59,195 bases of DNA from Syntrophaceae bacterium (GTDB lineage Bacteria; Desulfobacterota; Syntrophia; Syntrophales; Smithellaceae), in contig WRPE01000016.1 in the NCBI GenBank assembly GCA_009773315.1, forward strand, positions 1-59,195, in the 5' to 3' direction. The notes under the pieces were generated by a model that saw only the letters and a program-made list of their open reading frames with translations, searched no databases and was not told where the DNA came from. Below are positions 23,016-59,195 of this stretch, piece by piece. The translations under genes were made by a program, and so were the position numbers. The number at the start of each line of letters is the position of its first letter. Within the stretch, counting starts at the first letter, position 1.

Positions 23016-26009
23016 TTATTTCTTCTTTGCGGCCTTTTTCGGTGCGACTGTCTTCACGGCAACTTTCTTCGCCGCCGCCTTTTTGGGAACGGCTTTCTTT
23101 ACGGCAGCCTTCTTAACGGTGGGTTTCTTCGCGACAGCTTTTTTCGGAGCCGCTTTCTTCACTGCTACCTTCTTGTTCGCCGGTTTGGCTGTGGGTTTTG
23201 TTGCAATAGTTTTCTTTACTGCCTTAGCGACTGCTTTAACCACAGTGACTGCCTTAATCACTTTCTTTACCGCTTTCGTGACTGCCTTTTTCACAGGCGC
23301 TGCATGTCTTAGCGCAGCCTGAGCTGCGGCAAGCCTTGCAATGGGCACCCGGAAAGGAGAGCAGCTGACATAATTCAATCCGCATAAATGGCAGAACTCG
23401 ATGGAGCTTGGATCACCGCCGTGTTCGCCGCAGATGCCAATCTTCAATTTGGGATTGACGCCTCTGCCTTTGGCGACGGCCATCTGAACTAATTGGCCCA
23501 CGCCGTCGCGATCCAAAACGCGGAAGGGATCGACAGGCAGGATTTTCTTGTCCACGTAATCCGGCAGGAATTTGCCCGCGTCGTCACGGCTGTAGCCGAA
23601 GGTCATCTGGGTCAGGTCGTTGGTGCCGAAGGAGAAAAATTCCGCTTCTTTCGCGATTTCATCGGCGGTGACGGCGGCGCGCGGCACTTCAATCATTGTG
23701 CCTACGGAATAATTAACTTTCACGCCTGTTTCCGCCATAACTTTTTCGGCGGTGGCGACAATGATTTCTTTTTGTGAAACCAATTCCTTCACAATACCGA
23801 CCAGGGGAACCATGACTTCGGGACGGGCATCCACGCCTTCTTTGGTCAGTTGGCAGGCCGCTTCAAAAATTGCGCGTGCCTGCATTTCGGTGATTTCGGG
23901 ATAGGTGATGCCCAGACGGCAACCGCGATGCCCCAGCATGGGGTTGAATTCATGCAGTGAATTAACTTTGGCTTTAACGGCATCAACAGAAATGCCCATC
24001 TCGGCGGCCATGGCGCGCTGACTTTCTTCTTCGTGCGGGACAAATTCGTGCAGTGGCGGATCAAGCAGGCGGATGGTGACGCCGTATCCTTCCATTGCTT
24101 TGAGAATGCCGTAAAAATCTTCACGCTGTATCGGGAGGAGTTTGGCGAGGGCGTTTTTCCGGCCTTCAACGTTATCGGACAGAATCATTTCGCGCACGGC
24201 TTTGATGCGGTCGCCCTCAAAGAACATATGTTCCGTGCGGCAAAGACCGATGCCTTGTGCGCCGAAGTTGCGGGCGACGGCGGCATCGTGCGGTGAATCG
24301 GCGTTGGTGCGCACGGCCAGTTTTTTGGCTTCATCCGCCCATTGCATGATGGTTCCGAAATAGCCGGAGAGTTCCGCAGCCCGAGTCTTTACTTCGCCCA
24401 GCATCACTTCTCCGGTGGAGCCGTCCAGAGAGATGTAGTCTCCTTCTTTCACGAGGGCATCTTTAAATATGATTTCTTTTCGGGCATAGCTGATTTCAAT
24501 TTCTCCACAGCCGGAAACGCAGCATTTGCCCATGCCCCGGGCGACAACCGCTGCATGCGAGGTCATGCCGCCGCGCTGGGTGAGGATGCCCTGAGCCGCA
24601 CTCATGCCTTTGAGGTCTTCGGGAGATGTTTCAATGCGCACAAGAACAACTTTATCGCCGCGCAGATTCCAATTTTCCGCGTCGTCCGCGTTGAATACGA
24701 CTCTGCCGGTTCCCGCGCCGGGAGATGCCGGAAGGCCTTTGGCGATGACGCTTCGGGCGGCCTCGGGATCAAAGGTCGGGTGCAGCAGTTGGTCCAGAGA
24801 TGCCGGATCAATGCGCAGGAGAGCCGTCTTTTTATCGATTAATTTTTCAGCAACCATATCGACAGCAATTTTCACAGCGGCGGCTGCGGTGCGCTTGCCG
24901 TTTCTGGTTTGCAGCATCCAGAGTTTTTCATCTTGAATGGTGAATTCGATATCCTGCATGTCTTTGTAATGATGCTCAAGCTTGGTATAGACGTTGACCA
25001 GATCTTTGTAGGCGGCGGGCATGTATTCTTCGAGAGACGGGAAGGACGTTGCACGGTCGTTCTCCGCTACGTTGTTGTCGTTAGCCCAACGGCGTGATCC
25101 TTCAACAGTCACTTGCTGGGGTGTACGAATGCCGGCGACAACGTCTTCGCCCTGTGCGTTGATCAGGTATTCGCCGTAAAATGCATTTTCGCCTGTGGCC
25201 GGATCGCGCGTGAAGGCAACGCCCGTTGAGCATCGTTCGCCCATGTTGCCGAAAACCATGGCCTGGACGTTGACGGCTGTACCCCAGTTATCATCGTAGC
25301 CGTTCATTTTACGGTAGAGGACGGCGCGCGCTGTGTCCCAGGACATGAATACCGCACCGATTGCGCCCCAGAGCTGTTCTTTGGGATCGGAGGGAAATTC
25401 TTTGCCAAGTTTGGAAACGATCAGTTGCTTGTAGCGGCTGACCAGTTCTTTCAAGTCGGCCACGGTCAGGTCGAGGTCGGCTTTGGCGCCTTTTTCTGCT
25501 TTGAGTTCGTCCATGACTTCTTCGAACGGATCATGCGCATCTTTGTCTTCCGGTTTTAAGCCCATCACGACGTCGCCGTACATCTGCACGAAACGGCGGT
25601 AGGAATCCCAACCGAATCTTTCGTTGCCGGATTTGCGAATGATGCCCAGGACGGTTTCATCGTTCAAACCAAGGTTAAGAACAGTGTCCATCATGCCTGG
25701 CATCGAAACGCGAGCGCCGGATCGAACAGACAACAACAGGGGATTGGCCGGATCGCCGAATTTAGCGCCCATAGAGCTCTGGACTTTTTTCAAAGCCGCT
25801 TCGACTTCTTTTTCCAGGCCTGCGGGATAATGCTTGTTGTTTTTGTAAAATTCGTTGCAGACTTCGGTGGTGATCGTGAATCCCGAAGGGACCGGAATTC
25901 CCAGATTTGACATTACGGCCAGGTTTGCCCCTTTGCCGCCGAGGAGGTTTTTCATATCGGCTTTGCCTTCATTGATTCCCTTCCCGAATGTGTAAACACG
26001 TTTTGCCAT
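23016..26009 (-). CDS. ppdK: pyruvate, phosphate dikinase with histone-like Lys/Ala-rich tail
   Basis: The product has 997 residues; the family is usually about 870-900. It interconverts pyruvate, ATP and phosphate with PEP, AMP and pyrophosphate. N-terminal ATP-grasp ('[20 protein letters not shown]'), the phosphohistidine segment '[16 protein letters not shown]', and the C-terminal PEP barrel with '[20 protein letters not shown]' and '[10 protein letters not shown]' are all present, so the enzyme should be active. Residues about 902-997 are an added tail, 34 of 96 residues lysine, otherwise mainly Ala, Val, Pro and Thr, with repeats of the (A/V)KKA(A/V)PKK type and no acidic residue. This resembles histone H1/AlgP-like tails. 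AAAGGAGA precedes the ATG. Confidence 0.92.
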
Positions 26010-32700: not shown

Positions 32701-32744
32701 TAGAGTCTGCCAAAGATATTCATCTAACCATCGAAGAATTCTTA

Positions 32745-32909
32745 TTACATAAATAGTCCATAGCGCTTTGCCAGATTAACAATTTTCAATTTCATTTCCT
32801 TTGCCAGCCATTTCGGTTGTATCAATCGAGCCTCATCAATTGCGTTTCTCCCTCTGCGCATCAGGCATTTTCCCTTGCAATGTTTTGGGGAAGTAGTATT
32901 ATTCGCCAC
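32745..32909 (-). CDS. possible small basic protein (54 residues)
   Basis: A minus-strand frame from GTG at 32909 to TAA at 32745 encodes a Lys/Arg-rich peptide with two Cys near the start ('HCKGKCLMRRGRN') and a helical end ('WLAKEMKLKIVNLAKRYGLF'). Composition looks protein-like, but there is no clear ribosome-binding site and I recognise no family. It may be a remnant of a longer gene lost when the hsd block arrived. Confidence 0.3.
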   Translation of the reverse strand: MANNTTSPKHCKGKCLMRRGRNAIDEARLIQPKWLAKEMKLKIVNLAKRYGLFM

Positions 32910-32986
32910 GATAAATATGCTGGAATCTAAAAATCATATTCAAGATCAACTAAAGACTAAGGCAATTGTTCAAGGAAGAATTACCA

Positions 32987-35395
32987 ATGAGCTTAAATGA
33001 AGCTGAAACCCGTTTTCACCTCATCGATCCAGTTTTGCGTGAAAAAGGATACCACGATCATCAAAGGCTGAAGTTGGAAACCCCCGCCCCGGTTGAACCC
33101 ATAGGCCCCAAAGGCAGAAGGCGCAAAGGGCCGGGCCGCACGGATTATCTGCTGTGCGTGCAGGTGGGTGACATGCCCCGTCCTCTTCCCGTTGCCGTCC
33201 TGGAAGCAAAAAAGGAAGCGGAAGATCCTCTCAAAGGAATGCAGCAGGCCAAGGACTATGCCGATTGTCTGCGCTTTGATGTGAAATATGTATTTGCCAC
33301 AAACGGCCATCTCTATGGTGAGTATGACAAATTTTCGGGCCTGCAAAGCGGAACTTTCCCCTTCCCGGATTTTTCCCGGCATGAAGACCTGACGGCCCGC
33401 TATGCCAAAGACACGGGGATCAACGTCACGAGGCCCGAATCAGCCATGCTTTTTATGGCGGACAGCCCGGCCTATCCGCAATCCCGTTATTATCAGGATG
33501 CGGCCATTCGCGCCGCCTTTGAAAAGATTCTCCTTTGCGAGCAAAACGGGGTGCCTGCCCGTGTCCTGCTCAGTATGGCTACAGGTTCAGGAAAAACCAT
33601 CATTGCCGCCAATCTCTTATGGCGGCTCCATGAAGCCTGCCGTCTTCCCAAACCGGCGCTCTTTTTGTGCGACCGTGATGAACTGCGCGAACAGGCCTAC
33701 AATAAACTCAAAGCCGTCTTCGGCGACAATGCCCGCATTGTCGAAACCAAAAGAGGCGAAAATGCCGCCAAGAACGCCCGAATTCATATCGCCACCTATC
33801 AGACCCTTGGCCTGGATAATGAAGAAGAGGATTTTGCCAGCTTCCTCACGGAGCATTATGCCAATGATGCCTTCAGCGTCATTATCATTGACGAGTGCCA
33901 CCGTTCCGCATGGGGAAAGTGGTCGGAAGTGCTCAAGCGCAATCCCAACGCCATTCATATCGGCCTTACCGCCACCCCGCGTCAATTGCGTGAATCCAAA
34001 AAGAAGACGCCGGAAGATGCCGAAATCACGGCCAACAATCACAAATATTTTGGCGAACCCGTTTACGAATACACGTTGATTGAAGCGCAGGAAGACGGCT
34101 ATCTGGCCGCCTGTGAAATCGTCAAGCGCCAGGCCACCATCGACAACAAGGTATTTACCCGGGAAGAAATTCTGGAATTTAATCCCGTTAATATTCGCAC
34201 CGGAAAACCAATAACCGCTGATGACCTGAAAAAAGAAACCTACACATGCAAAGTATTTGATGATGAACTGTTTATTGATGTGCGCACCCCCGCCATGTGC
34301 AAAGACCTCTTCGAGCAGCTTTGCCAAAATGGCGGACCGGAACAGAAAGTGATTGTTTTTTGCAATCGAGAGATACATGCCGACCGCGTAGCCATGCAGC
34401 TCAATAATTTATATGTAAAATGGTGCAAGGCGCAAAATCGGACGCCCAAGGACCGCTATGCCTTCAAGTGCATGGGCGGCAAGAACAATGGCAGCGACAT
34501 GATCGAACCCATGCGCGGCTCCGGCGAGCGGGCCTTTATTGCCTGTACGGTGGATCTTCTGGAAGCGGGCGTGGATATTGAACGCCTCAATGCCGTCGTC
34601 TTTTTCCGTTACCTGGAATCGTCCATCAAGTTCTATCAGATGATGGGGCGCGGCTCCCGGATTCATGAGGAAACGGGCAAATACAAATTCTGGCTTTATG
34701 ACTATACTGGCGTGACGGACCTGTTCGGCACCGATTTTATTACAGCCCCGACCGGTCCCGGAAAGTCCGGCAAAGATTATGACGATGGGAATGGCGGTGA
34801 TGGCGGGGGCGGTGAGGAAAATCATCCACCGGTAGCGGAGATAGCCGGTCAAAGCACAGACGTCATCGGAAAGGGCCATTATATCGCCGTTCGCCGTGAT
34901 GGCCACGATGTCATGATTCCGGTCGATGAATACCGCCGGGAAATGGTGCAGCGGGTTTTGCGGGAAGCAAATAATCTGGATGAATTTCGTCAGCTCTGGA
35001 TTGAAACCGGCAAGCGCCGCCAGTTGATCAGCCATCTTCTCCAAGACAATTTCAGCCCCGAACTGCTTCGTGACATTGAAAACATGAACGAATTTGACAT
35101 CTACGATCTCTTTGCCCACCATGGTTACAAAGCCCGCGCCTTCAAGCGTCCCGAACGCAATTTGGCTTATGTGACGGCCAATAAAAATTGGTTTGATGCC
35201 GTGGACCCCAAGGCAGCCGTTGTGCTGAAAGGCATCGGCCATCAGTTTGAAGTCGGCGGCACCGAAGCGTTGGAGACGCCCACGCTCTGGGAAGTCCCGG
35301 AAATTAGAATGGCCGGTGGATTGGCGGCGTTGTCGCAGATCGGGAATCCGGCCACAGTGATGCATGACGCCAAGGGAAGGTTGTTTGCGGGATGA
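32987..35395 (+). CDS. hsdR: type I restriction endonuclease subunit HsdR
   Basis: The product has 802 residues. The N-terminal nuclease domain has the PD-(D/E)xK pattern as 'GRTDYLL' and 'AVLEAKKE'. The translocase has motif I 'ATGSGKT' (about 198-204), motif II 'DECH' (302-305), motif III 'GLTATPR', and motif VI 'QMMGRGSRI'. A glycine/aspartate-rich linker follows ('DDGNGGDGGGGEE'), then the C-terminal subunit-assembly region. With HsdM and HsdS it cuts unmethylated foreign DNA after ATP-driven translocation. The ATG at 32987 has AAGGAAG eight bases upstream; a TTG at 32966 is unlikely. The stop overlaps the hsdS start (ATGA), so translation is coupled. Confidence 0.93.
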   Translation: MSLNEAETRFHLIDPVLREKGYHDHQRLKLETPAPVEPIGPKGRRRKGPGRTDYLLCVQVGDMPRPLPVAVLEAKKEAEDPLKGMQQAKDYADCLRFDVKYVFATNGHLYGEYDKFSGLQSGTFPFPDFSRHEDLTARYAKDTGINVTRPESAMLFMADSPAYPQSRYYQDAAIRAAFEKILLCEQNGVPARVLLSMATGSGKTIIAANLLWRLHEACRLPKPALFLCDRDELREQAYNKLKAVFGDNARIVETKRGENAAKNARIHIATYQTLGLDNEEEDFASFLTEHYANDAFSVIIIDECHRSAWGKWSEVLKRNPNAIHIGLTATPRQLRESKKKTPEDAEITANNHKYFGEPVYEYTLIEAQEDGYLAACEIVKRQATIDNKVFTREEILEFNPVNIRTGKPITADDLKKETYTCKVFDDELFIDVRTPAMCKDLFEQLCQNGGPEQKVIVFCNREIHADRVAMQLNNLYVKWCKAQNRTPKDRYAFKCMGGKNNGSDMIEPMRGSGERAFIACTVDLLEAGVDIERLNAVVFFRYLESSIKFYQMMGRGSRIHEETGKYKFWLYDYTGVTDLFGTDFITAPTGPGKSGKDYDDGNGGDGGGGEENHPPVAEIAGQSTDVIGKGHYIAVRRDGHDVMIPVDEYRREMVQRVLREANNLDEFRQLWIETGKRRQLISHLLQDNFSPELLRDIENMNEFDIYDLFAHHGYKARAFKRPERNLAYVTANKNWFDAVDPKAAVVLKGIGHQFEVGGTEALETPTLWEVPEIRMAGGLAALSQIGNPATVMHDAKGRLFAG

Positions 35396-36501
35396 TCCAA
35401 ACCGATAGAAAGCCGTTGAATGACGTTGCAACAATAATCATGGGGCAATCACCTTCAAGTGATACATATAATAAGACAGGCAAAGGGCTTCCCTTTTATC
35501 AAGGTAAAGCTGACTTTGGTGATATTTATCCTACGGCGAGAACGTGGTGTGTCGAGCCTAAGAAAATTGCCGAAGAAGACGACATATTAATTTCAGTAAG
35601 AGCACCAGTCGGACCGACAAACCTTGCGAATGCAAGATGCTGTATAGGTCGAGGCTTAGCTGCAATTCGGCCTTTAAATAAAATAAGCGACAGAGATTAT
35701 CTTTGGTATTACCTGTGTTTTGCGAAAGCAGTGTTAGAGGAAAAAGGCCAAGGTTCAACGTTTGAATCTATCAGCACAGATGATTTGAATGCACTGAGTG
35801 TGCCTATTCCAACAATAAATGAACAACGTCGCATTGCGGCCCGCCTCAAAGCCCAACTGGCCGAAGTGGAGAAGGCCCGGCAAGCAGTGAAGGAACAATT
35901 GAGCGAAGCAAACAAACTTGCGGAGGTCATCATTTTTGATAGCCTCAACAATAAGCAAGTTGTGAACCATAAGCTTGGTGACGTTCTTGAGGAAGTAAAA
36001 TTGGGTATTGGAAAGAATTGGGCAAAATATCCCGTGCTGGGTGCAACGCGTGAGGGCCTCGCCCCGGCGAAAGAGCCACCGGGGAAAAAACCGGAACGAT
36101 ACAAGCCCGCATTTCCGGGAACTGTATTTTACAATCCCATGCGTATTCTCATTGGGTCAATCGCCTTCGTTGATGACGATAACGCACCCGGCATTACAAG
36201 CCCGGATTACGTCGTCTTGAAAGGCAAAGAAGGCCTTATCGATTCCCGCTGGTTTTACTACTGGCTGAGATCGCCCTTGGGTAAGCAGTGCATCAATTCG
36301 CTTGCGCGTGGAGCGGTAAGAGAGAGAATGCTTTTCAACCGTCTGGCCGAGGGAAAAATCACATTACCCGGTTACGGCATTCAAAAAATGGCTTCACAAG
36401 CGCTAGCCGAACTCAAACCTTTGCGGTTAGCCCTTCAACACAAGCTCGATGAAATTACTTTACTGCCCCAGCAAATCCTGGCGCGGGCCTTTGGGGGTTA
36501 A
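35392..36501 (+). CDS. hsdS: type I restriction specificity subunit HsdS
   Basis: The product has 369 residues. Two target-recognition domains are visible: residues about 5-140 ('LNDVATIIMGQSPSSDTYN' to 'LNALSVPIPTINEQRRIAAR') and about 190-345, each followed by a conserved helical spacer ('AEVEKARQAVKEQLSEANKL'; 'LKPLRLALQHKLDEITLL'). Each domain reads one half of a bipartite site and directs both methylation and restriction. The DNA for the first recognition domain is visibly richer in A+T than the spacer and neighbours, consistent with domain swapping. The target cannot be predicted from the sequence alone. Confidence 0.9.
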   Translation: MIQTDRKPLNDVATIIMGQSPSSDTYNKTGKGLPFYQGKADFGDIYPTARTWCVEPKKIAEEDDILISVRAPVGPTNLANARCCIGRGLAAIRPLNKISDRDYLWYYLCFAKAVLEEKGQGSTFESISTDDLNALSVPIPTINEQRRIAARLKAQLAEVEKARQAVKEQLSEANKLAEVIIFDSLNNKQVVNHKLGDVLEEVKLGIGKNWAKYPVLGATREGLAPAKEPPGKKPERYKPAFPGTVFYNPMRILIGSIAFVDDDNAPGITSPDYVVLKGKEGLIDSRWFYYWLRSPLGKQCINSLARGAVRERMLFNRLAEGKITLPGYGIQKMASQALAELKPLRLALQHKLDEITLLPQQILARAFGG

Positions 36502-36503
36502 TC

Positions 36504-36987
36504 ATGACAAAGAAGAAAACCGGAGAGATATCTCAAGAAACTGCACCCTCCACCGGCCGGTTGCTGGTGTACCAGTCCGATAACGGTCAGGTGAGGGTGG
36601 ATGTGCGGTTGGAGGGGGAAACGGTCTGGCTGACTCAGCAGCAGATGGTTGATCTATTTCAAACCACGAAGCAAAACATCAGCCTTCACGTTCAAAACAT
36701 CTTTGCGGAAGGAGAGTTGGCGCCTCAGGCAACTGTCAAGAAATACTTGACGGTTCGTCAGGAGGGCGGACGCCTTGTGCAACGCGAGCTTGAATATTAC
36801 AATCTCGACATGATCATTTCCGTCGGTTACCGGGTAAAAAGTGCGGTGGCTACCAGTGAAACGGCAGCGGCAATTAGAGGAACCGACCGAGGTGGAAGGA
36901 CATTTTATCAAAGCCGAAGAAGAGCTCAAACAGATCGAATCTTCACGGAGCAAACCATCAAATAAAAAATCAATCAGGAAGTCATAG
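36504..36987 (+). pseudogene. RhuM-family protein with internal deletion and frame change
   Basis: From the ATG at 36504 the product follows RhuM proteins: 'VRVDVRLEGETVWLTQQQMV', 'NISLHVQNIFAEGEL', 'YYNLDMIISVGYRVKS'. After the last motif (about residue 112) the frame leaves the family and stops at 36965. In the +1 frame the DNA encodes 'KRQRQLEEPTEVEGHFIKAE' and 'EELKQIESS' to a stop at 36987, which resembles the C-terminal end of RhuM proteins as I recall it. Most of the central 150-200 codons are therefore missing and the two ends are out of frame. RhuM genes often sit inside hsd operons; the role is unknown. Confidence 0.6.
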
Positions 36988-36995
36988 CCCGTATC

Positions 36996-38912
36996 ATGCA
37001 AAAAAAACAAAAGAAACAAGCCCAACCCAAAGCCATCGGTTCGACAAAATCGCTGTCGTCCTTTGTCAAATCAATTTGTGACATCATGCGCCGGTCCAAC
37101 TGCGCCAGCGCCCTGCAATATGTTCCGGAACTGACCTGGATTCTCTTTTTGCGCATTCTGGACGCACAGGAAGAACGAGACAGAAAAGCTGCCGAAGCCG
37201 TTGGCAGCACTTTTACCCCGGCGCTGGCCAGCCCTTACCGCTGGCGGGATTGGGCCTCGCCGTTTAAGGATCATCCCGACCATCCGAAAACCGCAGAAGG
37301 CAAACCCTTCGGCTGGAAAAGGCAGGAACTGTTCGCCAGAGGTGACGGTAAGTTGTTCGATTTTATCAATGGCGAGCTTTTAGCCCACCTGCATGGGTTG
37401 GATATCGATAAGCGCACCGGCCTTCCCAATCCGGCGGCATCGCGCAAACAGCGGATTATTGGACGCATCATGACCGCGGTGGAGCGTGTCCGCGTGGATA
37501 GCGAAACCAACCTGCGCGACATCCTCGACAAGGTGCATGAAATCAGCATTGATCATATCGAAGACCAGCACTTTTTTACGCTTTCGCAAGTCTATGAAGA
37601 CCTCCTGCTCAAAATGGGCGAAAAGAATTCCGACGGCGGTCAGTTTTTCACCCCCCGCGAAGTCATCCGCGCCATGGTGCACACCATCGATCCGCAATTG
37701 GGCGAAACGGTCTATGATCCCTGCTGCGGCACCGGCGGTTTTTTGGCGATTGCCTACGAACACATTGCCCGCAATTTAGGCAACGCCCCGGCCAGCACCG
37801 ACATTGATGAGCTAAAGCACGACACTTTCTTTGGCCGGGAAAAGGAAAATTTAGTTTTTCCGATAGCACTGGCCAATCTGGTTTTGCACGGCATTGATCA
37901 ACCCAATCTCTGGCATGGCAATACCCTGACCAAACGCACCACTTACGGCGCACTCTTTGAAAGCGCGCCGCCGACATTCAAGGTAATTCTGACCAACCCG
38001 CCCTTTGGCGGCAAGGAAGGCAAAGACGCCCAGAAAAACTTCGCCTTTGAAACCGGTTCCACGCAAACGCTGTTCGTGCAAAATATCCTGGGCGAACTTG
38101 CGCAGAAGGGACGCTGTGGCATTGTTCTCGACGAAGGGCTTCTCTTTCGTACCAATGAAACCGCCTTCGTGGAAACCAAGCGCAAGCTCGTTGATGAATG
38201 CGAACTTTGGGCAATCATCAGCCTGCCCGGTGGCGTTTTCTCTCAGGCAGGCGCGGGCGTCAAAACCAATCTACTGTTTTTCACCAAAGGTAAAACCACG
38301 GGGAAAATCTGGTACTACGATTTGACCCACGTTAAAGTCGGCAAGAAAACCCCAGTGACGCTGGCCCATTTTGGCTTCGGTAAAAACGGAGAGATATTGG
38401 ATGACAGCGGATTGCCCGCAAGTCTCACCGCTGGTTGGAAAGATGATGAAAATAATCAGGGGAAGCCGTTTCCAAGCTTTGCCCGACTGCTGCCGAAGCG
38501 CGGCACAGTGAAGGGTGAAAGCCCTTATTCCTGGACCATCGATTTTGCCGCCCGCCGCGCGCAAGCCCGCAAGGACATGCAGCCGCATCACGATGAAGCG
38601 GAACGTATTAAAGCCGTGGTTGTCTCCCTTAAGGAAGAACTGAAAGGCCTCAAGAAAGACAAAGAGGGCAACAAAAAGATTGCAGCCCTTGAAGCCAGAA
38701 TCAGGGAACAGGAAAAAGCCGCCCGAGACGCCCAGAACAAAGCCGATGATATCGATGCCGCCTGCTTCGATCTGAAAGCGGTTAACCCCAACGCCATCGT
38801 TAAAACAGATGATCGCACACCGGCAGACATCATTGAGAATATCGAAGCGCAAGGAAAAATTGTCACAACAGCTTTAGAGAAATTGAAGGTGCTGCTGGAA
38901 GAGCCGCTATAA
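36996..38912 (+). CDS. hsdM: type I restriction DNA methyltransferase subunit HsdM
   Basis: The product has 638 residues. A helical N-terminal domain ('LSSFVKSICDIMRRS') precedes the N6-adenine methyltransferase domain. It has 'GQFFTPREVIRAMV', the SAM-binding 'DPCCGTGGFL' (near residue 241-250) and the catalytic 'NPPF' (334-337). A C-terminal coiled coil ('KEELKGLKKDKEGNKKIAAL') probably contacts HsdS. It methylates adenine at the HsdS-defined site, protecting host DNA. The gene order hsdR-hsdS-rhuM remnant-hsdM is unusual, with the methylase last. The start is 30 bases after the first rhuM stop, with AGGAAG upstream at a long spacing. Confidence 0.92.
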   Translation: MQKKQKKQAQPKAIGSTKSLSSFVKSICDIMRRSNCASALQYVPELTWILFLRILDAQEERDRKAAEAVGSTFTPALASPYRWRDWASPFKDHPDHPKTAEGKPFGWKRQELFARGDGKLFDFINGELLAHLHGLDIDKRTGLPNPAASRKQRIIGRIMTAVERVRVDSETNLRDILDKVHEISIDHIEDQHFFTLSQVYEDLLLKMGEKNSDGGQFFTPREVIRAMVHTIDPQLGETVYDPCCGTGGFLAIAYEHIARNLGNAPASTDIDELKHDTFFGREKENLVFPIALANLVLHGIDQPNLWHGNTLTKRTTYGALFESAPPTFKVILTNPPFGGKEGKDAQKNFAFETGSTQTLFVQNILGELAQKGRCGIVLDEGLLFRTNETAFVETKRKLVDECELWAIISLPGGVFSQAGAGVKTNLLFFTKGKTTGKIWYYDLTHVKVGKKTPVTLAHFGFGKNGEILDDSGLPASLTAGWKDDENNQGKPFPSFARLLPKRGTVKGESPYSWTIDFAARRAQARKDMQPHHDEAERIKAVVVSLKEELKGLKKDKEGNKKIAALEARIREQEKAARDAQNKADDIDAACFDLKAVNPNAIVKTDDRTPADIIENIEAQGKIVTTALEKLKVLLEEPL

Positions 38913-38954
38913 AAGTGGCGCAATAAGCGACTCGGTTCTAAATGTTCGGATATT

Positions 38955-39413
38955 TCACTTTGGTTTTTTCAAACCGGTAATGCCTGAGTTGTTAAAACTG
39001 CTATGAAGGTCAAGCATTTCCATTTTGGATAGTAGGCCTGACTCAAGGAATCGATTGTAAATCATGCGTAATGTCTGTTCATTAAGCTTTCCTTTTTCGA
39101 CAATACTAGCCTGATTTTTCAGTAAATTGTTTTTTTCGATCGAATAAGGTTTTTCGTCAAAATCGATAATGCAATCATCGTCAAACATACTGAATTGGCG
39201 TTTTTCAAATTTAAAATGAATGTGGCCGGCGCGTGTTCCACCAAGTTGAAAATGATCTAGTTGGGTAGTTGTCGTCGCGAGGTAAACATACGCCGTTTGT
39301 GTAAAAGATCCAGTTTCACCAAGGTAGATGAACCAGCGTGGTTTTATTTCGGTGCCATATTTTGGTGCAGGAAAATGATCCCACCTCAACAACGTACCGA
39401 TTTCAAGATTCAA
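38955..39413 (-). CDS. putative toxin paired with a Panacea-domain antitoxin
   Basis: A 152-residue protein not directly recognised. The first 65 residues read like a small beta-barrel ('GTLLRWDHFPAPKYGTEIKP', 'RWFIYLGETGSF', 'TAYVYLATTTTQL'), reminiscent of PemK/MazF-type barrels, in which a loop before 'KPR' lies near the active site. The second half is helical and charged. The start codon overlaps the stop of the Panacea-domain gene (ATGA, 39410-39413), the usual arrangement where antitoxin precedes toxin. Its base composition is much richer in A+T than hsdM. If it is a toxin, mRNA cleavage is one guess, from fold impression only. Confidence 0.5.
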   Translation of the reverse strand: MNLEIGTLLRWDHFPAPKYGTEIKPRWFIYLGETGSFTQTAYVYLATTTTQLDHFQLGGTRAGHIHFKFEKRQFSMFDDDCIIDFDEKPYSIEKNNLLKNQASIVEKGKLNEQTLRMIYNRFLESGLLSKMEMLDLHSSFNNSGITGLKKPK

Positions 39414-39967
39414 GTCCCCAATGCTCTGTAAATCAGATAACTTTCTTCAGGATATGTCAGTTCTTCTTCTTTCTTTTTCAAAAGGTTATCATTGAATTCT
39501 GCGCTGTAATCGATCATGCCATTGTGGCATTTGTTCCAGGTCTTTCTCCAGGCAATGATGTCTTGATGGCTGGCATCGCTTATCAATCTGGCCGGTATGT
39601 AATTTTTTGCGTAAATTTCTATGAGCCGATGCATCTGCTTAATTTCTTTTTGAGAAAAATAATCAAGATTCGGCTTGCCCTTCGGTTGGATCGTTTTTTT
39701 GTTTTCCTGCCCTTCCGTGTAAGCAAAACAAGGTGATTTCCATTCATGGAGCTTGCCGTATATTTCCATTGGAACAGGTCCATGCTCCATGGCTTTATAT
39801 GATAACCCCAAGCTAGGTCTTCCAGTTTCCTTCAGTATCTCAAAATCAAGAAATGCTAAATACTTATACAAGAACGTCTGATACAATGGCTGCCTAGTCT
39901 TCTTCATGTGTTCATAGGCGAAGAAGCAGATGGCATTTTCGATTTTTTCTTTTTGATAGGGAATCAT
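39410..39967 (-). CDS. Panacea (SocA/DUF4065) domain antitoxin
   Basis: This 185-residue protein resembles the Panacea/SocA antitoxin domain: N-terminal 'KIENAICFFAYEH', then 'LYKYLAFLDFEILKETGRPS', 'SYKAMEHGPVPMEIYGKL', and a late 'LIEIYAKNYIPARLISDASH'. The G-P-V-P turn after a Y-x-A-x-x-(H/Y) is the family hallmark. Panacea domains neutralise many unrelated toxins encoded next to them, as part of PanA/PanT pairs. It is first in a two-gene unit with the 38955 gene. No clear ribosome-binding site precedes the ATG. AT-rich inverted repeats upstream (40061-40095) may be its operator. Confidence 0.75.
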   Translation of the reverse strand: MIPYQKEKIENAICFFAYEHMKKTRQPLYQTFLYKYLAFLDFEILKETGRPSLGLSYKAMEHGPVPMEIYGKLHEWKSPCFAYTEGQENKKTIQPKGKPNLDYFSQKEIKQMHRLIEIYAKNYIPARLISDASHQDIIAWRKTWNKCHNGMIDYSAEFNDNLLKKKEEELTYPEESYLIYRALGT

Positions 39968-40060
39968 AGTTTGAACCGAATCTTTTAATGTCTTTAAATT
40001 ATCTTTAACTGTTCAATAAGACAAATCCTGTGAGCTGTCAACTTGTATTTATTGAAATAT

Positions 40061-40095
40061 TAACAACATGTTATATGTTACATGAATCAGTTCAT
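40061..40095. promoter_or_regulatory. AT-rich inverted repeats upstream of the toxin-antitoxin pair
   Basis: TAACA-ACA-TGTTA (40061-40073) and ATGAA-TCAG-TTCAT (40082-40095) lie about 95-130 bases upstream of the antitoxin ATG. Toxin-antitoxin units usually bind their own promoter, so these are candidate operators. Confidence 0.35.
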
Positions 40096-40230
40096 ATATA
40101 AAAACAACATCAACATCATATATTTATCATATCGGTTTTCATTCTATAAAAGTTGAATAAGAGCTGACCGGGACGACCTTTAATGGGATGATTGGGATCA
40201 CCCGCATAGCTCGGTGTATGCCCATCACCC

Positions 40231-53754: not shown

Positions 53755-54260
53755 GAAAGAGTATCCTGTTTTTTCTCCACGTCTTTGGCCATTTTCGCTA
53801 CATAAGCGGCGAGTTTGGCATTCAAGGCTTTATCCTCCAGCGCCAGAAAACGTATGGCAAAAAGGGCGGCGTTTTTCGCCCCGGCTTTGCCGATGGCCAT
53901 CGTCGCCACGGGAATGCCTCCCGGCATCTGGACCGTGGAGAGTAAAGCGTCAAGGCCATGCAGAGATGTGGCGTCAATAGGAACGCCGATCACCGGTAAA
54001 AGTGTTTGCGAAGCAATCACACCGGCCAGATGTGCGGCTGCGCCCGCGCCCACAATGATGACTTTCACGCCACGCGAGGCGGCCGCTTTGGTAAATTTGG
54101 TTGTCCGTTCCGGTGTACGATGCGCCGATGTCAGCATCAGCTCATAGCCGATGCCGAACTTTTCCAGAATTTTTGCCGCTTCGGTCATGATTGGCAAATC
54201 CGAGTCGCTGCCCATGACCACGCTGACCAACACACTCTTTTTGGCGCTTTTTGCTTTCAT
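53739..54260 (-). CDS. purE: N5-carboxyaminoimidazole ribonucleotide mutase PurE
   Basis: The product has 173 residues. The signature 'VVMGSDSDLPIMTEAAKIL' and 'SAHRTPERT', with the catalytic Ser/Asp and His, mark class I PurE. 'GAGAAAHLAGVIAS' and 'PVIGVPIDATSLHGLDALLS' complete the active site. It converts N5-CAIR to CAIR in de novo purine synthesis and would need PurK elsewhere. AAGGAG lies before the ATG. It runs into tsaC on the same strand with a 16-base overlap. Confidence 0.95.
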   Translation of the reverse strand: MKAKSAKKSVLVSVVMGSDSDLPIMTEAAKILEKFGIGYELMLTSAHRTPERTTKFTKAAASRGVKVIIVGAGAAAHLAGVIASQTLLPVIGVPIDATSLHGLDALLSTVQMPGGIPVATMAIGKAGAKNAALFAIRFLALEDKALNAKLAAYVAKMAKDVEKKQDTLSCLKS

Positions 54261-54445
54261 GCAAGCTCCTTATTTTCACCCGTATATGTTATTGCTTAAT
54301 AATTTTTTCCGTCCTTAACGCATTGGATCGTACTTTGCAAGATGGTTTTTGCTTTGAAATATCAGCCGACAATCTTTAAAGTTTATCTCATCTGCCCCGA
54401 TAAAATTAATATTTCACCCAAATTCACAGTCCCGTCCAAATCCAG

Positions 54446-54474
54446 TTGACATATGAATCTTCTCTTCATATACT
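54446..54474 (+). promoter_or_regulatory. consensus sigma-70 promoter for the IMP synthesis pair
   Basis: TTGACA (54446-54451), a 17-base spacer and TATACT (54469-54474) lie about 50 bases ahead of the ATG at 54526. [13 protein letters not shown] would start near 54481. Confidence 0.75.
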
Positions 54475-54525
54475 CCCGCAACAAAAAAATTGATGCCTTA
54501 TCCATCACAAGGAGAGAAGTAAAAA

Positions 54526-55257
54526 ATGGAAGAGAACTTATACGAATATCTGGCCGGCAACGAGTATCCGGGCCGCGGCATATGCATCGGGAAAGAACCT
54601 AGCGGAAACAAAGCCATGATTGCCTACTTTATCATGGGCCGCAGCGTCAACAGCCGTAACCGCGTGTTTGACCGCATTGAAGGCGGCATCCGCACCCTGG
54701 CTGCCGACCCTTCCAAAATGACGGACCCGCACTTGATTATTTACAACCCCGTGCTGACTCTGAACAACACGACGATTGTGACCAACGGCGACCAGACCGA
54801 CACCATCCGGAGTTTTATGGCCCGCAACGATTTTCCAGGTCACAGCTTTGAAGCCGCGCTCTCGACCCGCACCTTTGAGGACGACGGTCCCAACTGGACG
54901 CCCCGCATTTCCGCCGTGGTGGATATGCGCGCAGGCGCTTACAAGCTAAGTATTTTGAAGAGCGATAATGGCGATGAGAAGAGTGTGCAGCGCTTTACCT
55001 TCGAATATTCAAAACCCCTGGCAGGCATTGGCCACTTTATCAGTACCTACAAGTGCAACGGCAACCCGATTCCCAGTTTTGCGGGTGAGCCTATTCGTGT
55101 CACCATCGATGAGGAAAATCCCAATGAATATGCAGGCAAATTGTGGGAAGCCCTGAACGAGGACAATAAAGTGAGTCTATTTGTGCGCGCCATCGATCTT
55201 AAGACCGGAGGCTACGAAGACGTCATCATCAACAAATATAAAACGGTGGAGGAATAA
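54526..55257 (+). CDS. IMP cyclohydrolase, PurO-like family
   Basis: The product has 243 residues. It is not the PurH cyclohydrolase domain but the separate IMP cyclohydrolase family known from archaeal PurO: 'YLAGNEYPGRGICIGKEPSG', 'AYFIMGRSVNSRNRVF', 'NPVLTLNNTTIVTNGDQTD', and a final beta-rich part. It closes the second purine ring, FAICAR to IMP. The gene lies three bases before the AICAR formyltransferase gene, so together they do what bifunctional PurH does. AAGGAGAG lies before the ATG, and a consensus promoter is upstream. Confidence 0.85.
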   Translation: MEENLYEYLAGNEYPGRGICIGKEPSGNKAMIAYFIMGRSVNSRNRVFDRIEGGIRTLAADPSKMTDPHLIIYNPVLTLNNTTIVTNGDQTDTIRSFMARNDFPGHSFEAALSTRTFEDDGPNWTPRISAVVDMRAGAYKLSILKSDNGDEKSVQRFTFEYSKPLAGIGHFISTYKCNGNPIPSFAGEPIRVTIDEENPNEYAGKLWEALNEDNKVSLFVRAIDLKTGGYEDVIINKYKTVEE

Positions 55258-55260
55258 GGA

Positions 55261-56439
55261 ATGAACGAAATAGCACTGAAATACGGCTGCAACCCCAACC
55301 AGAAGCCTTCCCGGATCTTTATGGCGGACGGTGGCAATCTGCCGGTTGTCGTGTTAAACGGCAAGCCCGGCTACATCAACTTTTTGGACGCCTTAAACAG
55401 CTGGCAACTGGTAAAAGAGCTCAAAGAGAATACCGGCATGGTTGCAGCGGCTTCCTTTAAACATGTCTCTCCCGCCGGCGCTGCTCTGGGCTTTCCTTTA
55501 GACGACGTCCTGCGCAAGATGTATCACATCGGTCCCGGCATACAACTCTCTGCGCTGGCCTGTGCCTACGCGCGCGCCCGCGGCGCCGATCGCATGAGCA
55601 GCTTCGGCGACTGGATTGCGCTTTCCGACGTGTGCGACGTGCCCACAGCGAAAATCATCAAGTCCGAGGTCACCGACGGTATCATTGCCCCGGGCTATGA
55701 GCCGGAAGCTCTGGAAATTCTGAAGTCCAAGAAGAGTGGCAACTATAACGTGGTCTCCATTGACACCAACTATGTGCCCGTTTCCCTGGAGCACAAGCAG
55801 GTGTTCGGTATCACTTTTGAGCAGGGCCGCAACGACCTGAAGATCGACAACCGCATGCTGGAAAACATGGTGACTAAGAATAAAACCCTGACGGACGCGC
55901 AGAAGCGCGACATGGTGCTCGCTTTGATTACCCTGAAATACACGCAATCAAACAGCGTCTGCTACGTGCAGGACGGCCAGGTCATAGGCGTGGGCGCAGG
56001 CCAGCAGAGCCGCATCCACTGCACCCGCCTGGCCGGCCAGAAGGCCGACAACTGGCAGCTGCGCCATATGCCCAAGGTGCTGGATCTGCCCTTCCGCGAC
56101 GATGTTTCCAAACCCAACCGAGACAATGCCACCGACGTTTACCTGGGCGATACCCCGGAAGATGCCATCGGCGAGGACGTATGGGCTGAAACATTCACTC
56201 GTAAGCCCGAGCCACTGACTGCGGCCGAGAAGAAGGCATGGCTTGCCAGGGTTACCGGTGTTGCCCTCGGCAGCGACGCGTTCTTTCCCTTCGGCGACAA
56301 CATTGAGCGCGCGCACCGCAGCGGCGTGACCGCCATTGTCCAAGCCGGTGGTTCCATCCGCGACCAGCAGGTGATTGACACCTGCGATAAATACGCTATC
56401 GCCATGGCGTTTTGCGGCTTGCGCCTGTTCCATCATTAA
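55261..56439 (+). CDS. AICAR formyltransferase (stand-alone PurH transformylase domain)
   Basis: The product has 392 residues. It corresponds to the AICARFT domain of PurH without the cyclohydrolase domain: 'LKYGCNPNQKPSRIF', 'AASFKHVSPAGAALG' (with the Lys-His pair that handles the formyl group), 'YTQSNSVCYVQDGQVIGVGA', 'QQSRIHCTRLAG' and 'SDAFFPFGDNIERAHRSGVT'. It transfers formyl from 10-formyltetrahydrofolate to AICAR, forming FAICAR for the neighbouring cyclohydrolase. It starts three bases after that gene, with GGAGG upstream. Confidence 0.9.
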   Translation: MNEIALKYGCNPNQKPSRIFMADGGNLPVVVLNGKPGYINFLDALNSWQLVKELKENTGMVAAASFKHVSPAGAALGFPLDDVLRKMYHIGPGIQLSALACAYARARGADRMSSFGDWIALSDVCDVPTAKIIKSEVTDGIIAPGYEPEALEILKSKKSGNYNVVSIDTNYVPVSLEHKQVFGITFEQGRNDLKIDNRMLENMVTKNKTLTDAQKRDMVLALITLKYTQSNSVCYVQDGQVIGVGAGQQSRIHCTRLAGQKADNWQLRHMPKVLDLPFRDDVSKPNRDNATDVYLGDTPEDAIGEDVWAETFTRKPEPLTAAEKKAWLARVTGVALGSDAFFPFGDNIERAHRSGVTAIVQAGGSIRDQQVIDTCDKYAIAMAFCGLRLFHH

Positions 56440-56571
56440 ACATACCAGGTCAAGGCAAAGAAGATCGGTCCTACTCAGATCGTTGAAGAGTAGTGCCATT
56501 TTTAAAGGATATAATGCTTGACATATTAATGAATATTGTGAAAATATTGAGTGTCCTTTAAGGAGACCTTT

Positions 56572-58074
56572 ATGTTTGCACGAATCAAAAAGTCAGGCCG
56601 CAACGAATACCTCCAACTCGTCGAAAACCGGCGGGACAATAAAAAAATCAGCCAGCGGGTTGTCGCCACTATCGGCCGAATGGACGAACTTCAGGCAAAC
56701 GGTAGTATAGAGACCATCATCCGATCCCTCTCCCGGTTTGCCGGAAAGAATCTGCTGAATATTTCCACCGGAGAAAGTAGCAATGTCCGGGCCACGGCAG
56801 AGAAGACCGGTTCCGTTCAGAACTTCAAAGGAAATAAAGGCAATTTCTCTCTCGAAGAAGAAAGCCGTCAGGGGGAAGAGCTGAAACACTCAATCGGGGA
56901 GAATGCACATATTTATAAAACGATATGGGAAAGTTCTCTGGCGGGCATTTATATCTCGCAGAATGGAATTTTTCAGGCCGTCAGTCCCCTTGCAGCGTCA
57001 TTTACAGGTTTTAGTTTGAAGGAACTGATTGGGAAAAATTCCGATAGTATGATCTTCCCCGAAGACATGGATAACGTAAAGAGAAATGCAGAGGATATGC
57101 TCAGCGGCAAACATTTTTCTCCTTATGAATTCAGGATTGTCACGAAGCAGGGGGATATTTGTTGGGTGATGGAGACGGTCACCTCTACTCTGTTTAAAGG
57201 AAAACCGGCGGTATTGGGAAATTTAACGAATATTACGAAGAGAAAACTCGTCGAAAATAAATTGCAGGAATCCGAGAATTTCTATCGGGCCATCTTTGAA
57301 ACAACGGGGACGGCAACCATCATTGTCGAGGATGATATGACGGTCTCACTCCTCAATTCCGAATTTGAAAGAATGACGGGATACCGAAGAGAAGAGTGGG
57401 AAGGGAAGAAAAAGTGGCCGGATTATATCCCGGCGTACGAGCTTCCGAGGATGAAAGAGACCCATCGTCTCAGGCGGCTTGACCCAAGTTTCGGACCAAG
57501 AAATTTCGAACATGACTTAATTGACAGTGAGGGGAGAATCAGACACATTTTCCTCACCGTAGATATGATTCCGGGAACGAAAAAGAGCGTCAACTCCTCT
57601 CTGGATATCACAATATGGAAAGAAGCGGAACAGGAATTACAGAACAAATCCCGCAATCTGGAGGAATTGAACACGACATTGAGAGTCCTGCTGAAGCAAC
57701 GCGAGCAGGACCGGGAAGAACTCGAAGAAAAGGTGCTTTCCAATGTGAAGGAATTCGTTCTGCCTTATGTGGAAAAAATCAAAAAAAGCAGGATGGACGC
57801 GAAAGCGCTGGTCTATGCCGATATCCTGGAGTTAAACCTGAAAGACATCATCTCCCCATTTTCCCGTAAATTGTCTTCCAAGTATATGAACCTTACGCCC
57901 AAAGAAGTTCAGATTGCCAACTTTATCAGGGAAGGTAAAACCAGCAAGGAGATCGCCGATATCATGAATGTATCCAAGAGCGCCGTCGATATTCACCGGT
58001 ATCGGTTGAGAAACAAGGTGGGACTGAATAATCAGAAAGCCAACCTGAAATCTTATTTCACCCATTATCTGTAG
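56572..58074 (+). CDS. chimeric regulator: IS1634-type transposase N-terminus fused to PAS-PAS-LuxR
   Basis: The product has 500 residues. Residues 1 to about 66 ('ARIKKSGRNEYLQLVENRR', 'ISQRVVATIGRMDELQA', 'IRSLSRF') match the N-terminus of IS1634-family transposases. No catalytic DDE part follows. A linker then leads to PAS domains at about 115-225 and 245-350, a coiled coil (350-395) and a LuxR-type helix-turn-helix from about 435 ('LTPKEVQIANFIREGKTSKE', 'AVDIHRYRLRNKVGL'). The start and ribosome-binding site (AAGGAG) are those of the transposase part. It may activate the nearby TRAP transporter gene, by inference. The fusion reads as one open frame with no frameshift. Confidence 0.8.
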   Translation: MFARIKKSGRNEYLQLVENRRDNKKISQRVVATIGRMDELQANGSIETIIRSLSRFAGKNLLNISTGESSNVRATAEKTGSVQNFKGNKGNFSLEEESRQGEELKHSIGENAHIYKTIWESSLAGIYISQNGIFQAVSPLAASFTGFSLKELIGKNSDSMIFPEDMDNVKRNAEDMLSGKHFSPYEFRIVTKQGDICWVMETVTSTLFKGKPAVLGNLTNITKRKLVENKLQESENFYRAIFETTGTATIIVEDDMTVSLLNSEFERMTGYRREEWEGKKKWPDYIPAYELPRMKETHRLRRLDPSFGPRNFEHDLIDSEGRIRHIFLTVDMIPGTKKSVNSSLDITIWKEAEQELQNKSRNLEELNTTLRVLLKQREQDREELEEKVLSNVKEFVLPYVEKIKKSRMDAKALVYADILELNLKDIISPFSRKLSSKYMNLTPKEVQIANFIREGKTSKEIADIMNVSKSAVDIHRYRLRNKVGLNNQKANLKSYFTHYL

Positions 58075-58075
58075 A

Positions 58076-58107
58076 ATATTACATTTAGTATCCAATAAAT
58101 GTAATAT
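58076..58107. terminator. 12-bp perfect AT-rich inverted repeat after the chimeric regulator
   Basis: ATATTACATTTA and TAAATGTAATAT flank eight bases, beginning one base past the stop. It contains almost no G or C, so it may be an operator rather than a terminator. Confidence 0.4.
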
Positions 58108-58409
58108 ATATTTCGTATTGCCTTTTACGCCCGCTTGGCTTAGCTTTTTTCCATACTTTTGCTGATTGCTCAACTTCTTTGTGAGTTTCTTTGTGAGTGA
58201 ACCGGCGGATACCGCATGGAACCCTGTATCATGAAGAAGCATAGGCTGTTGTCATGGATTGTGTTTCATCGGTTGCGTAAATATTGGCTCTCCCGCATAT
58301 ACACGGGGAAGAGTCGCGTCGCGGCAAGGGCAGGGGATATCGCACTCTCCATGATCAGCCATGCTGCCAAACCATTAATTTAAGTAGAAATGAAGAGGAG
58401 GGCCGTATT
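58108..58409. other. intergenic region before the TRAP gene
   Basis: A 12-bp tandem duplication (TTCTTTGTGAGT, 58175-58198) is present. A 50-codon frame at 58231-58383 is basic in composition but has no ribosome-binding site and no known family. No consensus promoter is visible. Confidence 0.3.
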
Positions 58410-59195
58410 TTGAAGACTAAGATTATGAAAGTATTGATGATCATTTTGATGTTCGCCTTTGCTGTCACCATCGCCGGGACCGGGCCGAGAGACGCCGGCG
58501 CCGCCATGACCATTCGTGTCGCCGCCACCGTATCTCCCACCCATTCCTATTCGGTGGTCGTCAAAACATTCAAGCAGGAAATAGAGTCCAAGACCAATGG
58601 CGCTATAAAGATCACTTACCACGGCGGCGGCGTCATGGGCGGAGAACGCCAGATGGTGGAAGCCGTCGTACGCGGCGATCTCGATATGACCTGGAGTTCC
58701 GACATCGGTGTGGCAGCCGTGTTTCCCGAGTTGGGATTTGTCAATCTGCCCTACCTGTTTAAGAACTACACCGAAGTGGATGCCAAGTACCGCCATGGCT
58801 GGATTGGCCAGTACGTCATTAACCATTTGGACGGCAAAGGCGTCAAGGTTCTTGCCATCGGTGAAAACGATTACCGCGGCCTGACCAATTCCAAACGCCC
58901 CATCACCAAGGGTGAGGACTTAAAGGGCCTGAAGCTGAGAGTGCCGGAAGTGCCCATGTATATCGATTTCTATAAAACCATGGGCGTACTTCCCACCCCC
59001 ATGGCCGTTACCGAACTGACCACGGCCCTGCAGCAGGGGACCGTCGATGGTCAGGACAACGGCGCCATCATCACCTATGACTTCGGCATGCACACGTTTC
59101 AAAAGTATGCCACCAAGGCCAATCAGATCTACTCCGGGATGCAAATGTGCCTGTCTAAAAAGACCTGGGACAAGCTGACGCCGGAACAGCAGAAG
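58410..59195 (+). CDS. TRAP transporter solute-binding protein DctP family (5' part, runs off the window)
   Basis: 262 codons are visible, with no stop before the window ends. The signal peptide is 'VLMIILMFAFAVTIAGTG'. The mature part follows DctP proteins: 'HSYSVVVKTFKQEIESKTNG', 'GERQMVEAVVRGDLDM', 'LKGLKLRVPEVPMYIDFYKT' with the conserved Arg that binds the substrate carboxylate, then 'TALQQGTVDGQDNG'. It captures a small organic acid in the periplasm and delivers it to DctQ/DctM membrane subunits that should lie right of the window. The TTG at 58410 has GGAGG eight bases upstream; an ATG at 58425 is the alternative start. Confidence 0.9.
   Translation, partial: MKTKIMKVLMIILMFAFAVTIAGTGPRDAGAAMTIRVAATVSPTHSYSVVVKTFKQEIESKTNGAIKITYHGGGVMGGERQMVEAVVRGDLDMTWSSDIGVAAVFPELGFVNLPYLFKNYTEVDAKYRHGWIGQYVINHLDGKGVKVLAIGENDYRGLTNSKRPITKGEDLKGLKLRVPEVPMYIDFYKTMGVLPTPMAVTELTTALQQGTVDGQDNGAIITYDFGMHTFQKYATKANQIYSGMQMCLSKKTWDKLTPEQQK

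What the first reader, a model, noticed from the sequence alone, without database searches (positions are those of the whole stretch)
56572..58074. Transposase N-terminal domain fused in frame to a PAS-PAS-LuxR regulator
The first ~66 residues carry the IS1634-transposase N-terminal pattern ('YLQLVENRR', 'QRVVATIGRMDELQA', 'IRSLSRF') with its own ribosome-binding site, and then one frame continues into sensor and LuxR-type domains. The chimera may have captured the promoter and a DNA- or dimer-binding module of an IS, making a new regulator next to a TRAP transporter. That the first part is of IS1634 type is from recalled family features; that it is functional is inference.
Basis: partly seen in the sequence, partly recalled or inferred. 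Interest (0 to 1): 0.85.

Follow-up and report, generated by a model that had tools for sequence, protein, structure and literature searches.

The report
Transposase head captured by gene regulator
In two related bacteria a sensor gene has lost its own start and now begins with the promoter, start signal and first folded piece of a jumping gene's enzyme, so a transposon part has been built into a regulator, although what the piece does there is untested.

Summary
Confirmed. Frame 56572-58074 (500 codons) is a true fusion. Codons 1-85 are the start of an IS1634-family transposase: the nearest, 74% identical, scores 385 bits (cut-off 100) on the NCBIfam IS1634 model. From about codon 94 it is a PAS-PAS-LuxR regulator; matches at E 1e-40 in related genomes begin at codon 83 or later. 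The same fusion (84% identical) lies at the same place in a second Smithellaceae species, so it is no assembly join. A third species with the same neighbours keeps only remains of the regulator.

More than a domain was taken: the IS box GTAGTGCCA (exact in 27 of 30 IS rows), the promoter and a start-masking RNA hairpin came along. With no in-frame start between codons 37 and 142, an intact first PAS needs the IS start. A second copy of the IS tail (56445-56488) precedes the box. Catalytic domain and terminal repeats are gone.

Codons 1-56 are predicted to fold as one unit and keep all 19 positions conserved in IS heads (dN/dS to the nearest IS 0.10; tail 0.57). Nucleic-acid binding, and control of the TRAP genes, are inference. 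Of 38 other long frames with this head, all are transposases.

The parts
56572..58074 (+). Whole fusion gene, 500 codons and stop: IS1634 transposase head plus PAS-PAS-LuxR regulator
   Evidence: same fusion 84% identical in G007 = L051
56445..56488 (+). Upstream partial copy of the IS transposase tail, direct repeat of 56787-56830, spacing 342
   Evidence: also in L051 at 4874-4917
56490..56498 (+). Box GTAGTGCCA, conserved in IS1634-type elements upstream of the transposase and again after its stop codon
56518..56545 (+). Promoter-like site TTGACA-16-GAAAAT at the place of the IS promoter; best-scoring of 5 in 56300-58450
56536..56583 (+). Predicted RNA hairpin over ribosome-binding site and ATG, as in most IS copies
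56572..56739 (+). IS1634 transposase head, codons 1-56: predicted three strands and two helices
56740..56826 (+). IS transposase tail, codons 57-85, less constrained; homology to the IS ends about here
56827..56850 (+). Linker of unknown origin between the IS part and the first residues matched by most unfused regulators
56944..57240 (+). First PAS domain (residues 125-223)
   Evidence: PAS_9, PAS_3
57280..57558 (+). Second PAS domain (residues 237-329)
   Evidence: PAS, PAS_4
57889..58035 (+). LuxR-type (GerE) helix-turn-helix, residues 440-488
55261..56439 (+). Upstream neighbour: AICAR formyltransferase (PF01808)
58425..59195 (+). Downstream neighbour: TRAP transporter binding protein DctP, cut by the window end

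Best explanation
An IS1634-type element next to or inside an ordinary PAS-PAS-LuxR regulator gene lost its catalytic body and both ends, leaving its box, promoter, masked start and first 85 codons joined in frame to the regulator, whose own start codon is gone (shown by comparison). An intact product must therefore start in the IS part (shown by the absence of another start; [13 protein letters not shown] and translation themselves not shown). It is most likely a cytoplasmic PAS-sensing, LuxR-type [13 protein letters not shown] factor of the neighbouring TRAP transporter (inferred from domains and position). The folded IS head, kept while the adjoining IS tail drifted, most likely still does what it did in the transposase, that is bind nucleic acid or help the protein pair (inferred).
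For: Head to codon 85 in IS1634 transposases. Nested among IS heads as sister of L052, support 100/99 (midpoint root). Regulator part without the head in other genomes. Same fusion and place in a second species. No ATG/GTG/TTG in frame between codons 37 and 149 (window) or 37 and 142 (L051). IS promoter, box and hairpin kept. Constraint: 51 of 56 head residues equal L052; all 19 head positions shared by at least 90% of 28 IS heads are kept; against L052 pS is alike in head and tail (0.51, 0.48) but dN/dS is 0.10 and 0.57. Regulator part between the two species: dN/dS 0.16.
Against: Expression has not been seen. G015 lost nearly all of the regulator, so it is dispensable there. The head's low dN/dS may date from its life in the IS: 1 of 91 IS-IS pairs shows a tail-to-head ratio as high as the fusion's 3.98, and 3 of 91 reach 3.5. 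Between the two fusion species the head has too few changes to measure selection. No significant fold match for the head. The box is rarer in the genome than the reversed control (14 against 50), so no wider regulon by that box is visible. The hairpin's z-score depends on the stretch folded (-4.3; -1.4 and -1.5).
Confidence: 0.6

Rival explanations
1. Promoter and start capture only: the IS supplies expression signals, and the head is a passive leader that stays because the gene has no other start.
For: No other start codon; the hairpin pairs the leader with codons 1-5, so some of the DNA would be kept anyway; activation of host genes by promoters inside IS elements is known (PMC2753651, abstract start in a search listing).
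Against: Would not by itself keep residues 6-56 while the tail drifts at the same synonymous distance; but that constraint could be older than the fusion.
Confidence: 0.3
2. A decaying chimera without function, kept by chance in two close species.
For: Regulator lost in G015; fusion found in only 2 of the 155 genomes of the order; head shows only 2 differences in 60 codons between the species, too few to measure selection there.
Against: Frame open for 500 codons in both species while dS in codons 86-500 is 0.62 and dN/dS 0.16; HTH and PAS domains score well.
Confidence: 0.09
3. Assembly artefact or frameshift join.
For: The genome is in 86 contigs.
Against: Same junction in another genome assembly, with sequence differences on both sides of it.
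Confidence: 0.01

Closest known systems
IS1634-family insertion sequences
   Same: Head, tail, box, promoter and start hairpin; nearest copy L052/L031 74% identical over the head; IS1634 model NF033559 385 bits for L052
   Different: No DDE domain, no terminal repeats; only the first 85 of about 550 codons
PAS-PAS-LuxR (GerE) regulators of the same order
   Same: Codons from about 94 to the end, 48-54% identical to the best unfused relatives
   Different: Those carry no IS head, and the nine loci read have no TRAP genes beside them
Eukaryotic genes that captured a transposase domain (F-box genes with a Tc1/Mariner HTH, PMC12062965, abstract start in listing)
   Same: A transposase domain joined to a host domain
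   Different: Eukaryotic multicopy families; here a single bacterial gene in which promoter and start codon were taken as well
TldR, RNA-guided [13 protein letters not shown] factors (PMC13418256, abstract start in listing; descent from TnpB is recalled)
   Same: Transposon protein turned into a bacterial [13 protein letters not shown] factor
   Different: By recall a whole inactivated nuclease, not a head fused to a sensor regulator
IS200 5'tnpA RNA (PMC12594629, passages)
   Same: IS leader with a stem-loop that hides the ribosome site, reused by the host
   Different: Reused as a small RNA, not as part of a protein

Membership tests
IS1634-family element | Transposase passes the IS1634 model (NF033559) and has a DDE domain | tested here: not met
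   Met by the relative L052; the fusion itself has no such match
IS1634-family element | Terminal inverted repeats at both ends | tested here: not met
   No site with 3 or fewer mismatches to TCTTTAACAGTTG, either orientation, in 56201-58700
IS1634-family element | Target duplication of 5-6 bp (PMC2266710, passages) | not testable with these tools
   Ends are lost
IS1634-derived fragment | Sequence descent from IS1634 transposases | tested here: met
   E 1.9e-32; next to L052 with 100/99; in plasmids 14 of 21 matched records carry an IS1634 annotation at the match, the other 7 none
LuxR/GerE-type regulator with PAS sensors | GerE HTH and PAS domains above curated cut-offs | tested here: met
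Host-transposase fusion gene | Both parts exist apart, are joined in frame, and the joint frame occurs in more than one species | tested here: met
Host-transposase fusion gene | Expressed, with a function of the transposase part | not testable with these tools
   No expression or binding data at hand
Arm-type integrase or PC4-like DNA-binding fold (for the head) | Significant structural match | tested here: inconclusive
   Foldseek best E 1.1; VIA-align Z 3.4, rmsd 3.6, 53 residues to 3jtz and Z 2.6, rmsd 3.0, 48 residues to 6ycs, tied with unrelated rows

The most novel reading that the evidence does not exclude
The captured head is the IS1634 element's own operator-binding module: it still recognises the GTRGTGCCA box that came along with the promoter, so that the fusion is a [13 protein letters not shown] factor with two DNA-binding ends, a transposase-derived one that governs its own gene (and perhaps silences invading IS1634 copies; no second head was found in either genome) and a LuxR one for host targets, switched by the PAS domains.
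Probability: 0.17. Interest if true: 0.85.

Novelty: new variant of a known kind. Interest (0 to 1): 0.62.

Why it matters
Transposase domains built into [13 protein letters not shown] factors are well known in animals and plants; as far as I recall, clear bacterial cases are few. Here both parents, the junction, a sister species and a species that lost the regulator are in hand, and the donor's promoter, start hairpin and box came with the coding part. It also gives a handle on the conserved first 56 residues of these IS1634 transposases, for which I found no described fold or function, and on the conserved box that flanks their gene.

Tried and rejected
DNA-level selection or a mobile cassette as the cause of the near-identity of 56509-56776 between the two species (2 differences in 268 bases): rejected as special, because 8 other non-overlapping windows of that length among 34,426 aligned bases have 2 or fewer.

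A regulon marked by the box: the genome has 14 GTRGTGCCA, fewer than the 50 of the reversed control.

Covariation of the start hairpin: RNAalifold on 26 rows gave no pairs; by eye the loops were not lined up. before it held one row (L043) on the wrong strand and was not used. Single-sequence folding with shuffles was used instead (21 of 27 IS rows below z = -1.5; the six others are L034, L047, L059, L060, L062, L069). With other borders the signal is weaker: one search gave z -1.4 (33 bases) and -1.5 (106 bases) for the fusion, -2.7 (36 bases) and -1.4 (106 bases) for L052.

Fold relatives of the head: none significant; the full-length model (pTM 0.38) was not searched. Rfam: none at E up to 1 in 54000-59195. 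PHROGs: nothing better than E 0.06 for the first 100 residues. Viral contigs: no relative of the head. Solved structures by sequence: four chains, matching residues 436-488 only. (class) covered as many genomes as the order search, 155, and added nothing.

Other fusions: 78 loci given, 77 rows carry the head (duplicates between collections and loci included); 41 have a frame of 300 codons or more: 3 are this fusion (2 genomes) and 38 run into the transposase body; of the other 36, 12 have a transposase body nearby and 24 not; these 36 were not scanned for other domains.

Papers searched: IS1634 with fusion and regulator, exaptation and domestication, transposase with LuxR and PAS, IS1634 with hairpin, host-transposase fusion, domesticated regulator (none), in-frame chimeras (none), TnpB exaptation. 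I saw no report of this fusion in the listings; the library is open-access only and most papers were seen as listings.

Full report
OBSERVATION. The frame 56572-58074 encodes 500 residues. Pfam finds PAS domains and a GerE (LuxR) helix-turn-helix from residue 125 on. The first 100 residues alone match no Pfam or NCBIfam model at E up to 1, and in PHROGs nothing better than E 0.06.

THE HEAD IS FROM IS1634. The first 85 residues match in 17 of 155 genomes of the order (the two fusion genomes included) and in 26 of 395 drawn from the phylum, at E 0.001 or better. The best foreign match (G154/L031; L052 is the same contig end by its coordinates and first 60 bases) is 74% identical and continues into a 550-aa protein with a DDE domain that scores 385 bits on the IS1634 model, cut-off 100. 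In plasmid records the same stretch lies under an IS1634 annotation in 14 of 21 records; in 7 nothing is annotated there. A tree of 28 IS heads and the two fusion heads puts the fusions next to L052 with support 100/99, inside the IS heads under a midpoint root. Base by base, identity to L052 drops from 8 of 15 (codons 81-85) to 2 of 15 (codons 86-90).

THE REST IS AN ORDINARY REGULATOR. Of 59 related genomes 35 hold a match at E 1e-40 or better; apart from the two fusions every listed match begins at residue 83 or later (in most genomes only 26 candidates were scored). In the own genome, at a laxer limit, one 28% identical match begins at residue 49, inside the head (E 1e-14, C73); the head alone finds no second place there even at E 10. 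The best unfused relatives are 48-54% identical. Where their frames are short (L011, L013, L014, L017, L018) candidate starts lie up to about 35 residues before the match; L012, L015 and L016 sit in longer frames. In the nine such loci read (L109-L117, 7.5-15 kb, some cut by contig ends) none has TRAP or AICAR formyltransferase genes.

THE FUSION IS REAL AND SHARED. G007 (contig JAUYFM010000059.1, a Smithellaceae MAG) has the same junction between the same neighbours, 84% identical over all 500 residues. Codons 86-500 differ with dS 0.62 and dN 0.10, dN/dS 0.16; codons 1-85 with dS 0.05 and dN 0.02. G015 has the same neighbours on both sides, but between them only remains of the regulator's 3' half: 40 bases at 90% (57974-58013) and, weakly, 27 bases at 81% (E 0.05); similarity resumes after the stop codon. 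I infer that it had the regulator and lost it; whether it had the head cannot be seen. Close DctP relatives (E 1e-80) occur only in these three of 155 genomes. No second copy of the head was found in G000 (E up to 10) or G007 (E 0.001); assemblies in many contigs can miss repeats.

WHAT ELSE CAME ALONG. Upstream DNA is IS too. A nine-base box, GTRGTGCCA, lies 80-89 bases before the transposase start; 27 of 30 IS rows have it exactly, 3 with one change (rows partly close relatives; L064 left out for lack of upstream DNA, L072 and L074 because their box, with one change, lies at -127). A second box in the same orientation follows the stop codon by 4-37 bases in 18 of 19 complete copies, with at most one change from GTGGTGCCA (in the 19th, L067, the contig ends 29 bases after the stop; L043 and L073 are one sequence). 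The fusion keeps the upstream box at 56490-56498. The -35 hexamer TTGACA is kept; 17 of 30 IS rows have it exactly, 27 at 5 or 6 of 6, and 56518-56545 is the best promoter-like site of the region (5 found, 3.3 expected by chance). Around the start (40 bases before to 15 after), 21 of 27 IS rows fold with z below -1.5; the fusion's leader folds with z -4.3 (L051 -4.0), ribosome site 82% and ATG 97% paired. Against that, with other borders the fusion gives z -1.4 and -1.5, and no consensus structure came from the alignment. Hiding of the ribosome site is known for IS200 (PMC12594629, passages). Both terminal repeats are missing.

A SECOND TAIL. The 44 bases 56445-56488, right after the upstream gene's stop and before the box, repeat 56787-56830 at 70% (77% in L051), spacing 342 in both species. 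They match the tail of IS transposases: against the whole L052 element 0 of 1500 shuffles reach the score of the window copy, 6 of 1500 that of the L051 copy; against 12 single IS tails the window copy is at p 0.002 or less for 7 (L052, L032, L054, L057, L036, L059, L066) and not for 5. One frame reads KKIGPTQIVEE then stop, like KIGPxxIFE of the IS. So the IS remnant is a partial tandem: tail, box, promoter, head, tail. A tandem duplication of about 342 bases, later cut on its left, would explain it; IS1634 and IS1549 are reported to make direct repeats of 8-514 bases on insertion (PMC2266710, passages), which is only a lead.

THE IS START IS OBLIGATORY. In frame, ATG/GTG/TTG occur at codons 1 and 37 and then not before 149 (window) or 142 (L051), while the first PAS begins near 112-125. 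An intact regulator can only start in the IS part.

THE HEAD IS A FOLDED, CONSERVED UNIT. AlphaFold2 gives residues 1-56 as three strands and two helices, pLDDT near 90 for residues 1-50 and under 50 from 64 on (mean 70, pTM 0.53). In the full model the head scores 79-85 for residues 1-40 and 68 for 41-50, with low confidence at 57-61, 66-70 and 76-110. The head is basic (12 K/R, 6 D/E). The 19 positions in 1-56 that at least 90% of 28 IS heads share are all kept, while P81 and R87 of the IS are changed. Against L052 the head has 51 of 56 residues equal and the tail 12 of 27; IS pairs with head identity 0.85-0.95 have tails at 0.56 or more, mean 0.74 (n = 10). Synonymous distance is alike in head and tail (pS 0.51, 0.48), dN/dS 0.10 and 0.57. 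The tail-to-head ratio of amino-acid changes, 3.98, is reached by 1 of 91 IS pairs (14 rows; median 1.62, maximum 4.0), so the pattern is extreme but not outside the family, and some of it may predate the fusion. No fold match is significant; arm-type integrase domains and PC4 among the weak rows are a lead only.

MECHANISM. Shown: origin, borders, shared expression signals, lack of another start. Inferred: PAS-controlled DNA binding by the LuxR end; the TRAP genes as target; the head as a nucleic-acid-binding or pairing module. Against a box-based regulon: 14 boxes in the genome, control 50.

UNIQUENESS. Of 41 frames of 300 codons or more that begin with the head, 3 rows are this fusion and 38 are transposases. 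Bacterial reuse of a transposon protein as regulator is known (TldR, PMC13418256, abstract start in listing; its descent is recalled). A review of reuse of mobile elements in prokaryotes (PMC8987985, passages) has no occurrence of 'fusion' or 'insertion sequence' in its main text. My searches are listed under Tried and rejected.

VERDICT. A genuine IS1634-regulator fusion: new variant of a known kind (reuse of transposon parts). Its architecture is secure; the role of the head is open.

Noticed in passing
L052, L054, L059, L060 and others: IS1634-type elements of this group carry the same box GTRGTGCCA before and after the transposase gene, in direct orientation inside the terminal repeats. 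I know no explanation.
   Followed up: partly
IS copies, 40 bases before to 15 after the transposase ATG: A predicted hairpin over ribosome site and ATG is found in most copies of this IS group (21 of 27 with z below -1.5).
   Followed up: partly
window 23016-26009, minus strand: A 997-residue protein that looks like pyruvate phosphate dikinase (recalled, not scanned) ends in a long Lys/Ala/Pro-rich tail like histone H1.
   Followed up: no
window 54526-56439: A stand-alone IMP cyclohydrolase-like protein (PF07826) next to a separate AICAR formyltransferase-type protein (PF01808).
   Followed up: no
window 32966-38912: Apparent type I restriction-modification genes (recalled from the sequence) in a stretch (32703-40229) that has no aligned counterpart over 300 bases in G007's contig.
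   Followed up: no
L118 1710-2480 and 6638-7408: G015 has two DctP copies around DctQ and DctM while it lost the regulator.
   Followed up: no
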